Origin: Sipunculus nudus
Lineage: Eukaryota; Annelida; Sipuncula; Golfingiida; Sipunculidae
Direction of reading: 5' to 3'
NCBI GenBank assembly: GCA_026874595.1
Contig: CM049313.1
Coordinates: 32,548,008 to 32,612,007, forward strand
DNA: 64,000 nucleotides
Made by a program: the position numbers and the translations under genes. Positions 32,401 through 35,400 of the stretch are shown here, in pieces (positions within the stretch are counted from its first letter, which is position 1; every line of letters starts with the position of its first letter). The notes under the pieces were generated by a model. It made no database searches and had not been told where the DNA came from. It saw nothing but the letters and a program-made list of their open reading frames with translations.

Positions 32401-35400
32401 TTCTTTGAAAGATCCCCCTTTTGAGCATTTTCCTCACACAAGATCTCCTTGTGCACAATAGACCTTTTCGCTGCGGGGAGATTGCCTTTTGAGAAGGGAT
32501 CACCAATGGGGATTATTTCGGACCGGTCACCGCAAATTTAAGAAAAGCCCAGATAGGGCCCCAGGAGAAAAACTCTGTCCCGCCATCAAACACTCTGTGG
32601 CCATTGTGTTACCGGGCCCAAAGACACAAAGAAAAGAGGCGCCCGCGGGGGAGCAAATATTAAAATTATTAATTATGCACGTAATACGCAAATATTGCAA
32701 ATAAAAGGGGGCGGAATCTCTTCGGACAAACCCAGAGCATATGTATGTCGAAAATCACGGCAATCCGTACAGCAGTATCAGAGGAGATACGGAAAATCAC
32801 AAAAATCGCCTTATGCTATAAATATATAGATTAGAACCTATATACAGATTTGTATGATAGGTCCAAGGGCCTCAGCTAAAATGACATGGGGAGCACAGTG
32901 TGAGCCAGTGTATCCGATCCCAGGCCTGAGTCACCACAATAAGTGAAGTTTCAGCCTGATCAGAATGTATAACATTTTTGGAGCCAAGTCAGTCAGGGCA
33001 TCTCCTGAACAAGGGTCCCATGCGCTGTGTTTTTGTTGATGCCTGTGATTATTCCTGGTCCACTGATTTTAGCACTCATTTAAGCCAGAAGTTTCAGGGA
33101 ATATATTGGCAGGTACCAATTTATTTTAAAGAGAAGACGCTGTCTTTTGTGTTACTTCAACATGCTTTGTAGGAGTTTAGGCCCCTTTAATGTTATTGTC
33201 TTATGCATAGTAATATCAGGAGTTTATCATCATGGATGTCAGTTTATTGATTAACTGCAAATAAAAAAAAATTCAGAATGTAAAGTCAGTGAGGCATTCA
33301 AGATATTTTTTATTTATCATCCCATTTATGTCTTTGTGACCTGGTCTCCTACAGGAATGCTTGCTTGTTTGATAAAGGAACCAAACCAGTTGCTTATACT
33401 CAGTGCTTAAAATTGATTGTTCATGGTGTGATTGTTTCAGTCTGGTACCATACAGAGAACAGACGGTGCTCATAATGAATTGTTCATGATGTGATTGTTT
33501 CAGTCTGGTACCATACAGAGAACAGACTGTGCTCATAATAAATTGTCATTGGTTTGATTGTTTCAGTCTAGTACCATACAGAGAACAGACTTTGCTCATA
33601 ATAAATTGTTTACGGTGTGATCGTTTCAGTCTGGTACCATATAGAGTACAGACTGTGCTCATAATGAATTGTTTACGGTGTGATCGTTTCAGTCTGGTAC
33701 CATACAGAGAACAGAGTACTCAGGCACAGGTGGTGAAGCGCAAACCGTATTCTCCTTTCCAGACCAACAATAATATTGACTTCGCCCTTGCACGTGTGGA
33801 TGACCTTGTTAACTGGGCCAGAAAGGTAAACCATCCATTAATTTACCTCAGATTGTGAGAACATTAGTCCTGTAATGATTACACATGGGAAATTAAATTA
33901 TACAGTGCTCAGAATCTATGTTTGATTTCCATTGCATTTTACTTATCTTACAGCAACTTATGTAACTGTCACAGCAGCTGAGATACAATTTACATGAGAG
34001 TCCAAATGAATGAACAAAGCTAAGGAAAGGGTTATAATAAAATTGTATGTAATCTGTGGGAATGAAAAATCTGTTACATTCAGGTGTCATATGAAAATGG
34101 ATGATGCAGAGACATGGCATTATGAATGCTTTGCCTTTTTAGCTCAGCTGACTATAAGTCATCTGAGCTATAGTCGTGGTCCATTGTCCATCGTCTGTCC
34201 GTCCGTCCGTCCGTAGATGTGGCACGTTTTGAAACCGTAAGACCTAGGAATCCAAAATTCGGCATTATGTTAGATGTCCCCAAGATCTCCTACCAAGCCG
34301 AAAACTGGGTCTTTGCGACTTCGTTCCTTTGAGAAATTAAGGAAAAACCTCAATTTTTTATTAAAAACCTATTTTCACACTTCAGGACTGCCTAATATCA
34401 AAACCACTCATCTGTTTTTCCTCATATTTACCATAAATATTCCTCTATATAGTTCCTATGTACATTCAAGAAATTATGTCTGTATTATATAATTTAAAAA
34501 AGTTATGGACCCAAACATAATGCATTTTGTAAAAAATCAGGAAAGATATTTGATCACTTAACACAAAACATGTTAAAGCTATGGACCTTTTTTCCAGTAA
34601 TATAACTTTAATTAATCAAAATTAAATTGTATACCCAAAATTAGATGAAAATCTTTTTAATTTTTAAAAATATTAATAAAAATAAAAAATTGGTACCTTA
34701 AATTTTGGCCAACTTTGACCATGGCACGTTTTTTTCCTGTAAGTTCTGTGGATTTAATTTTCACAGCATGTTTTTGTTAGCTTTTCAACTGTTAACACCA
34801 AAACTTTGAAACCAGTTAATCAAATACTGTAGATTTTATTCAAGTTTTCAAGCACCATGTAACATTGTTTACATCAATAGAGCCAATGATTTTCCGTGAT
34901 CGCGGGAAACGGACGGAATTCGCGGAAAACGCATTTTGAAACGGAATTTCAAAATGCCACGGAGTCTGGGTAACCTGGAAAAAAATTAGAATTTTCTTCA
35001 CTAAGTCACAAGATATCGGCATTTCCAATTCCTAAGAGCTTTCAGAAATCCAGAATCATTTAATATCAGTTTGCAATGGTGACCTGCACCACATTTACTG
35101 TCAAATAGAGGCCCCTGCGTTGGCTATCAAACATCGTAGCTCGCATGATTGTATGTAGTGACCCATGGCTTAACGTAACAGGTGTCAGGTGTGACCCGCG
35201 AGTCGACCGTAAAACATGCAATGTGCCTGACCTTTAGGCTTATTAATATTCAGACACGCGACCCCTTACGATTCAGGGGAATCCCCTGCTTTCAAACGGC
35301 AATGCCCAGAACGCAGTGCGCCCGACTTTGTAATGCATGCAAAATGTCAAAGGTCTGCCTTTTTGGGAAAATAATCACGCTGAATGCAAACTTTGTCCAG

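What the first reader, a model, noticed from the sequence alone, without database searches (positions are those of the whole stretch)
33418..33732. NDUFS7 intron 2 acceptor copied five times in perfect 63-bp steps, open in frame
Each unit carries a full TTTCAG acceptor and the first 17 or so exon bases. 63 is a multiple of three, and units 2-5 are linked without a stop. Choosing acceptor 2, 3 or 4 would add 63, 42 or 21 residues (SLVPYREQ-type repeats) between the presequence and the core of a complex I subunit. Unit 1 is closed by TGA.
Basis: partly seen in the sequence, partly recalled or inferred. Interest (0 to 1): 0.82.

Follow-up and report, generated by a model that had tools for sequence, protein, structure and literature searches.

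The report
Splice sites copied in tandem arrays
Short repeats in this animal genome sometimes run across the edge between intron and exon, leaving rows of look-alike splice sites of which the one next to the exon is probably the one used; the reported gene has three such rows, and they most likely do not add repeats to its protein.

Summary
At 33416-33715 a 63-bp unit (40 intron-derived bases ending TTTCAG plus 23 exon bases) stands five times before an NDUFS7 exon. Acceptors 2-4 are in frame and open by 63, 42 and 21 codons; acceptor 1 meets TGA.

It is not peculiar to NDUFS7. Of 249 myosin, TCP-1 and kinesin exon matches from the same genome, 8 have the acceptor and 4 the donor inside such arrays, with up to 23 and 28 copies. 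Across 11 acceptor arrays only 10 of 77 upstream AG copies could be translated, and steps ignore the reading frame (25 of 81 multiples of three).

Best reading: intronic minisatellites that spread over a splice junction, tolerated because the exon-proximal copy is used, as in human CBS 844ins68. In-frame NDUFS7 isoforms are not excluded, nor favoured. Excess retention of AG/GT in spare copies (p 0.0008-0.04 by control, 0.07 without either of two arrays) hints that they may be bound or used. No RNA data were available.

The parts
29773..29902 (+). NDUFS7 upstream exon (presequence-like), donor GT at 29903; its acceptor is single
   Evidence: sequence read; no array there
33416..33715 (+). 63-bp tandem array, 5 units, spanning the acceptor of the next exon
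33439..33630 (+). Spare acceptors 1-4 (first bases after AG: 33441, 33504, 33567, 33630); all four keep AG
33693..33825 (+). NDUFS7 exon with the exon-proximal (fifth) acceptor; single donor
38695..38874 (+). NDUFS7 exon ([19 protein letters not shown]...), single acceptor and donor
40159..40512 (+). 78-bp array, 5 units, spanning an acceptor; first bases after AG 40253, 40331, 40408, 40485; the most upstream unit, at 40175, has AT instead of AG
40485..40620 (+). NDUFS7 exon [21 protein letters not shown]...
42414..42546 (+). 66-bp array, 2 units, spanning an acceptor; first bases after AG 42463 and 42529
42529..42626 (+). Last coding exon of NDUFS7 ([12 protein letters not shown]...WYRK, stop TAG)

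Best explanation
An intronic minisatellite that overlaps the splice junction. A short segment made of the intron end (pyrimidine tract, AG) and the first exon bases was duplicated in tandem and then amplified by slippage or unequal exchange. The spliceosome uses the copy touching the uninterrupted exon: the last one at an acceptor array, the first one at a donor array. The other copies are removed with the intron. They fall outside the mRNA, the exon stays intact and the array is tolerated, which is why such arrays reach splice junctions at a rate not far below that of the surrounding intron. Shown: the arrays, their copy numbers, their occurrence in several genes, lack of coding potential in most spare copies. 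Inferred: the duplication mechanism, and the choice of the exon-proximal copy (by exon definition, since sequence strength singles it out in only some arrays).
For: Array anatomy. Genome sample of 249 exon matches: 8 acceptors and 4 donors inside arrays (flagged; judged by eye); with the three NDUFS7 arrays, 81 spare copies at 11 acceptors and 46 at 4 donors. By one mechanical criterion arrays cover 9-13 of 249 positions at 50-300 bases into the upstream intron, 7 at 25 bases and 5 at the start edge of the match; 7-10, 6 and 4 of 249 on the donor side; 0 of 249 in mid-exon: an intron background that stops at exons. Only 10 of 77 upstream AG copies are translatable; codon positions 1/2 and 3 change alike in spare copies. 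Spare acceptors score as high as the exon-proximal one or higher in 28 of 77 cases, and in 7 of 11 arrays for more than half of the copies, by a weight matrix from 226 other exons. [quoted passage not shown]
Against: No transcript was seen. In L109 and L134 none of 22 and 16 spare acceptors scores as high as the exon-proximal one, so there strength could explain the choice. NDUFS7 has 3 of 5 located acceptors in arrays against 8 of 249 in the sample (Fisher p 0.0006), more than a uniform background gives; the gene span is 15% array against 5.4% for the window. That comparison was made after the fact. AG and GT in spare copies changed less often than control positions, which a purely passive account does not predict. 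In L171, L157 and L134 the spare copies match the used junction only loosely (20-25 of 32 bases).
Confidence: 0.77

Rival explanations
1. Alternative in-frame acceptors: NDUFS7 makes isoforms with 21, 42 or 63 extra residues between presequence and core.
For: Units 2-5 are open in frame; all 4 spare acceptors score at least as well as the fifth; exon-derived bases changed less than intron-derived ones; the insertion point lies in a part without a Pfam match (exon 33694-33825).
Against: The class as a whole keeps neither frame nor openness (10 of 77; 25 of 81 steps divisible by three). Of the four upstream AG copies in the other two NDUFS7 arrays, three shift frame and one inserts 22 residues into the core. 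Open reading over about 13 intron-derived codons per unit is unremarkable (inference).
Confidence: 0.12
2. Spare splice sites act in splicing without being translated: they recruit U2AF/U2 or U1 snRNP, strengthen exon recognition, or serve as first-step sites that are re-spliced; they are kept by selection.
For: 77 of 81 spare acceptors keep AG and 44 of 46 spare donors keep GT. On parsimony trees of the spare copies of 10 acceptor arrays: 4 events in 20 AG columns against 62 in 120 exon-derived columns (p 0.03), 121 in 164 columns at -20 to -4 (p 0.002) and 29 in 38 columns of other AGs in the same units (p 0.004); adding 3 donor arrays, 6 in 26 against 189 in 259 exon-derived columns (p 0.0008). 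A permutation on plain mismatch gives 0.004 over all positions and 0.011 against exon-side positions.
Against: Against close neighbours only (-10 to +8) the effect shrinks to p 0.04, 0.02 by permutation, and to 0.07 without L052 or without L059. The alignment is anchored near the junction, trees are crude (UPGMA), and columns are not fully independent.
Confidence: 0.2
3. Assembly artefact: repeat units added by misassembly.
For: Tandem arrays are error-prone in assembly (general knowledge); exact copy number is unverified.
Against: Units differ from each other (mean mismatch to their consensus 0.06-0.36 in the intron part of the 10 arrays with two or more spare copies), steps vary in many arrays, a decayed unit is present at 40175, and several unrelated genes show the same thing.
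Confidence: 0.03
4. First step of intron or exon birth: spare acceptors are being recruited into new introns or exons, as in the potato RdRp gene where a duplicated intron-exon boundary gave a new intron.
For: Same starting anatomy as the potato case (PMC4974935, passages).
Against: Exon-derived parts of the spare copies change without codon-position bias. Whether units hold a usable new donor was not tested.
Confidence: 0.05

Closest known systems
[quoted passage not shown]
   Same: Tandem copy of intron end plus exon start, similar unit size, two splice sites of which the more distal is strongly favoured (PMC2630376, passages)
   Different: One extra copy in one human gene, polymorphic; here up to 23 copies at acceptors and 28 at donors, in several genes
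Internal tandem repeats at exon-intron boundaries of human segmental-duplication genes (De Grassi and Ciccarelli 2009)
   Same: Tandem-repeat variation at exon-intron boundaries; 27 intron modifications found (PMC2812944, outline and sections 6 and 10 read)
   Different: Compared paralogues in recent human duplications, with most coding cases in frame; no rows of many intact splice sites described in the sections read
Intron gain by tandem duplication across an intron-exon boundary, potato RdRp
   Same: The duplicate crosses the 3' end of an intron and the start of the next exon (PMC4974935, passages)
   Different: There a new intron results, with a donor recruited from the exon; here the spare copies look like intron
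Tandem-duplication (proto-splice site) model of intron gain in Drosophila
   Same: Tandem duplication supplies extra splice sites (PMC2891723, passages)
   Different: Starts from coding sequence; here the junction of an existing intron is copied

Membership tests
Duplicated splice junction of the CBS 844ins68 kind | Tandem duplicate contains intron end, intact AG and exon start | tested here: met
Duplicated splice junction of the CBS 844ins68 kind | mRNA uses the exon-proximal copy and is normal | not testable with these tools
   no RNA data; only frame and stop evidence
Minisatellite (tandem repeat) expansion | Head-to-tail units, several copies, partly diverged | tested here: met
   variation between individuals not testable
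Alternative in-frame tandem acceptors | Each acceptor gives an open, in-frame message | tested here: inconclusive
   met for 3 of 4 spare copies at 33416-33715, 0 of 3 AG copies at 40159-40512, 1 of 1 at 42414-42546; 10 of 77 over 11 arrays
Alternative in-frame tandem acceptors | Coding constraint on the extra segment | tested here: not met
   pooled over 10 arrays, codon positions 1/2 and 3 change alike (43 in 80, 19 in 40); too few changes in the 33416-33715 array alone to judge
Intron gain by tandem duplication | A new donor is used inside the duplicate | not tested
   needs transcripts

The most novel reading that the evidence does not exclude
Rows of spare splice sites are a common, selectively kept feature of this genome: the spare AGs and GTs are bound or used in stepwise splicing without entering the mRNA, and the number of units tunes how well the exon is included, so a core respiratory gene carries three such adjustable arrays.
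Probability: 0.17. Interest if true: 0.82.

Novelty: new variant of a known kind. Interest (0 to 1): 0.5.

Why it matters
Similar splice sites that differ mainly in position are a natural experiment on how the spliceosome chooses between competing sites; here there are 15 such arrays with 2 to 28 copies in one genome. They also warn annotators: gene finders may pick a wrong acceptor, and in-frame repeats such as SLVPYREQ may be annotated as protein when they are intron. If copy number varies between individuals, the arrays give a ready test of whether spare sites affect splicing.

Tried and rejected
Considered and rejected: a mobile element as source of the 63-bp unit (a search of the assembly with 33416-33740 returned only this place, though that search skips very common words); selection for in-frame steps (25 of 81 steps); acceptor strength as the general reason for the choice (28 of 77 spare copies score at least as high; but 0 of 38 in L109 and L134). 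An excess of acceptor over donor arrays (8 against 4) is not significant (p 0.39).

Rows dropped: of 63 PF00118 matches, 11 on bacterial-type contigs and 3 in long open frames were left out, 49 used; of 126 PF00225 matches one with 15 stops inside was left out, 125 used; all 75 PF00063 matches were used. The two scans had slightly different settings (score 24, period to 400 for 122 matches; score 22, period to 300, best six rows per exon for 127). Candidates looked at and judged not to cross a junction: L035, L056, L057, L154, L142, L137, L140. Arrays flagged away from the match edges were not inspected. The donor of L032 is ambiguous between two neighbouring GTs, both inside the array; I counted the first motif tried (4 copies; the other gives 5 with one lacking GT). 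L045 is one weak spare copy (25 of 32). The array with a single spare copy (42414-42546) is left out of the distal-only trees, and L045 likewise. Some exon-derived columns may run past the true unit end.

Literature: ten searches ran; one search failed on a term and did not run. No title or abstract start in those listings described multi-copy splice-site arrays of this kind; the library lacks most subscription journals. The classical cis-competition work on duplicated splice sites is recalled only.

Full report
OBSERVATION. TRF gives 33416-33715, period 63, 4.8 copies, and the five acceptors have their first following base at 33441, 33504, 33567, 33630 and 33693. Each unit carries 40 intron-derived bases ending TTTCAG and 23 exon bases. 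Acceptors 2-4 are in frame and open (+63, +42, +21 codons); acceptor 1 reads into a stop. The gene is NDUFS7: exon 38695-38874 matches NDUFS7 chains of solved complex I at 1.6e-34 and two of three exons tried match PF01058. In the assembly PF01058 gives 20 matches, one here on C8 and 19 in open frames on small contigs C61-C90.

MORE OF THE SAME IN THIS GENE. The acceptor of exon 40485-40620 lies in a 78-bp array of five units (40159-40512), four of which keep AG, the most upstream having AT. The acceptor of the last coding exon lies in a 66-bp array of two units (42414-42546). The acceptors at 29773 and 38695 are single, and none of the four donors located (29902, 33825, 38874, 40620) is inside an array. 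So 3 of the 5 acceptors located in this gene are multiplied. The finding mentions only the first.

HOW COMMON IS IT. I took exon matches of three families from the same 1.43-Gb assembly: 75 of 75 myosin-head matches, 49 of 63 TCP-1 matches and 125 of 126 kinesin matches, 249 in all (DNA). A self-comparison scan flagged candidates, and those near a match edge were inspected by eye. Eight acceptors are inside arrays: L052 (about 80 bp, 7 copies), L059 (about 30 bp, 6), L167 (61 bp, 9), L119 (72 bp, 9), L109 (31 bp, 23), L171 (43 bp, 3), L157 (60 bp, 5) and L134 (about 60 bp, 18); copy numbers are, for six of them on longer stretches fetched. In L171, L157 and L134 the copies match the used junction only loosely (20-25 of 32 bases). 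Four donors are inside arrays: L037 (36 bp, 28 copies), L169 (about 52 bp, 16), L032 (35 and 61 bp, 4, exact donor ambiguous) and L045 (83 bp, 2). That is 3.2% of acceptors (95% interval 1.4-6.2%) and 1.6% of donors (0.4-4.1%). Denominators are approximate, since a family match does not always reach the true exon edge. With one mechanical criterion, arrays cover 9 to 13 of 249 positions at 50-300 bases upstream, 7 at 25 bases and 5 at the start edge of the match; 7 to 10, 6 and 4 of 249 on the donor side; and 0 of 249 exon middles. Arrays thus belong to the intron background and stop where the exon must stay intact.

ARE THE SPARE COPIES CODING? Over 11 acceptor arrays there are 81 spare copies, 77 with AG. 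Ten of the 77 would give an in-frame, open message (3 at 33416-33715, 1 at 42414-42546, 4 at L119, 1 each at L059 and L109); 67 shift the frame or meet a stop. Steps between copies are multiples of three in 25 of 81 cases. On trees of the spare copies of 10 arrays, the first 12 exon-derived bases changed 43 times in 80 columns at codon positions 1/2 and 19 times in 40 at position 3: no trace of coding constraint. I take the contrast to reflect the protected parent copy (inference).

WHICH COPY IS USED. With a weight matrix from 226 other exons of this sample, 28 of 77 spare acceptors score as high as the exon-proximal one or higher, and in 7 of 11 arrays more than half of the copies do; in L109 and L134, 0 of 38 do. 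Sequence strength therefore does not mark the used copy in general; position does, if the conserved proteins are made. The natural account is exon definition (established knowledge, not tested here). [quoted passage not shown] the passage says donor where the title of its own reference says 3' splice site). The potato RdRp gene shows another outcome, a new intron, after a similar duplication (PMC4974935, passages).

A HINT THAT SPARE SITES MATTER. AG is kept in 77 of 81 spare acceptors and GT in 44 of 46 spare donors. On distal-only trees of 10 acceptor arrays, AG columns changed 4 times in 20, exon-derived columns 62 in 120 (p 0.03), columns -20 to -4 121 in 164 (p 0.002), other AG dinucleotides in the same units 29 in 38 (p 0.004). 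Adding three donor arrays gives 6 in 26 against 189 in 259 exon-derived columns (p 0.0008). Plain mismatch with permutation gives 0.004 over all positions and 0.011 against the exon side. Against close neighbours only, 4 in 20 against 79 in 160 gives p 0.04, a permutation 0.02, and dropping L052 or L059 raises the latter to 0.07. The alignment is anchored at the junction, so part of this may be bias. I treat it as a lead.

ORIGIN. In the first array the linker between units resembles the intron just upstream of unit 1 (CAGTGCTTAAAATTGATTGTTCATGG against CAGACTGTGCTCATAATGAATTG...), so the original duplicate ran from about that point to exon base 23, with CAG at both ends as a possible microhomology (sequence; the mechanism is inference). 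A DNA search of the assembly with the array returned no other place, which speaks against a mobile element, within the limits of that search.

NDUFS7 AS AN OUTLIER. Three of 5 acceptors against 8 of 249 gives Fisher p 0.0006, and the gene span is 15% array against 5.4% of the window. The gene came to attention because of an array, and many genes exist, so a gene like this is expected somewhere (inference); no special cause is needed.

VERDICT. Real, probably misread in meaning, and wider than reported: minisatellites that cross splice junctions, a multi-copy and multi-gene variant of a known kind of duplication. RNA from the species would settle it.

Noticed in passing
   Followed up: partly
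window 55139-57272: Overlapping frames of a protein that looks like a transposable-element product (two pieces tried had no Pfam match; the label is from general appearance).
   Followed up: partly
window 43227-43415, 44035-44237 and 44360-44542: A 28-bp repeat forms two direct arrays and one inverted array within 1.3 kb.
   Followed up: no
window 12990-13125 and 49015-49153: A 69-bp dimer and what looks like its reverse complement 36 kb away, perhaps copies of one dispersed element.
   Followed up: no
   Followed up: no
L037 and L195 (G000:C7:52358784, donor side): The longest donor array seen: 28 copies of 36 bp with all 27 spare GTs intact; a good first target for cDNA checks.
   Followed up: partly
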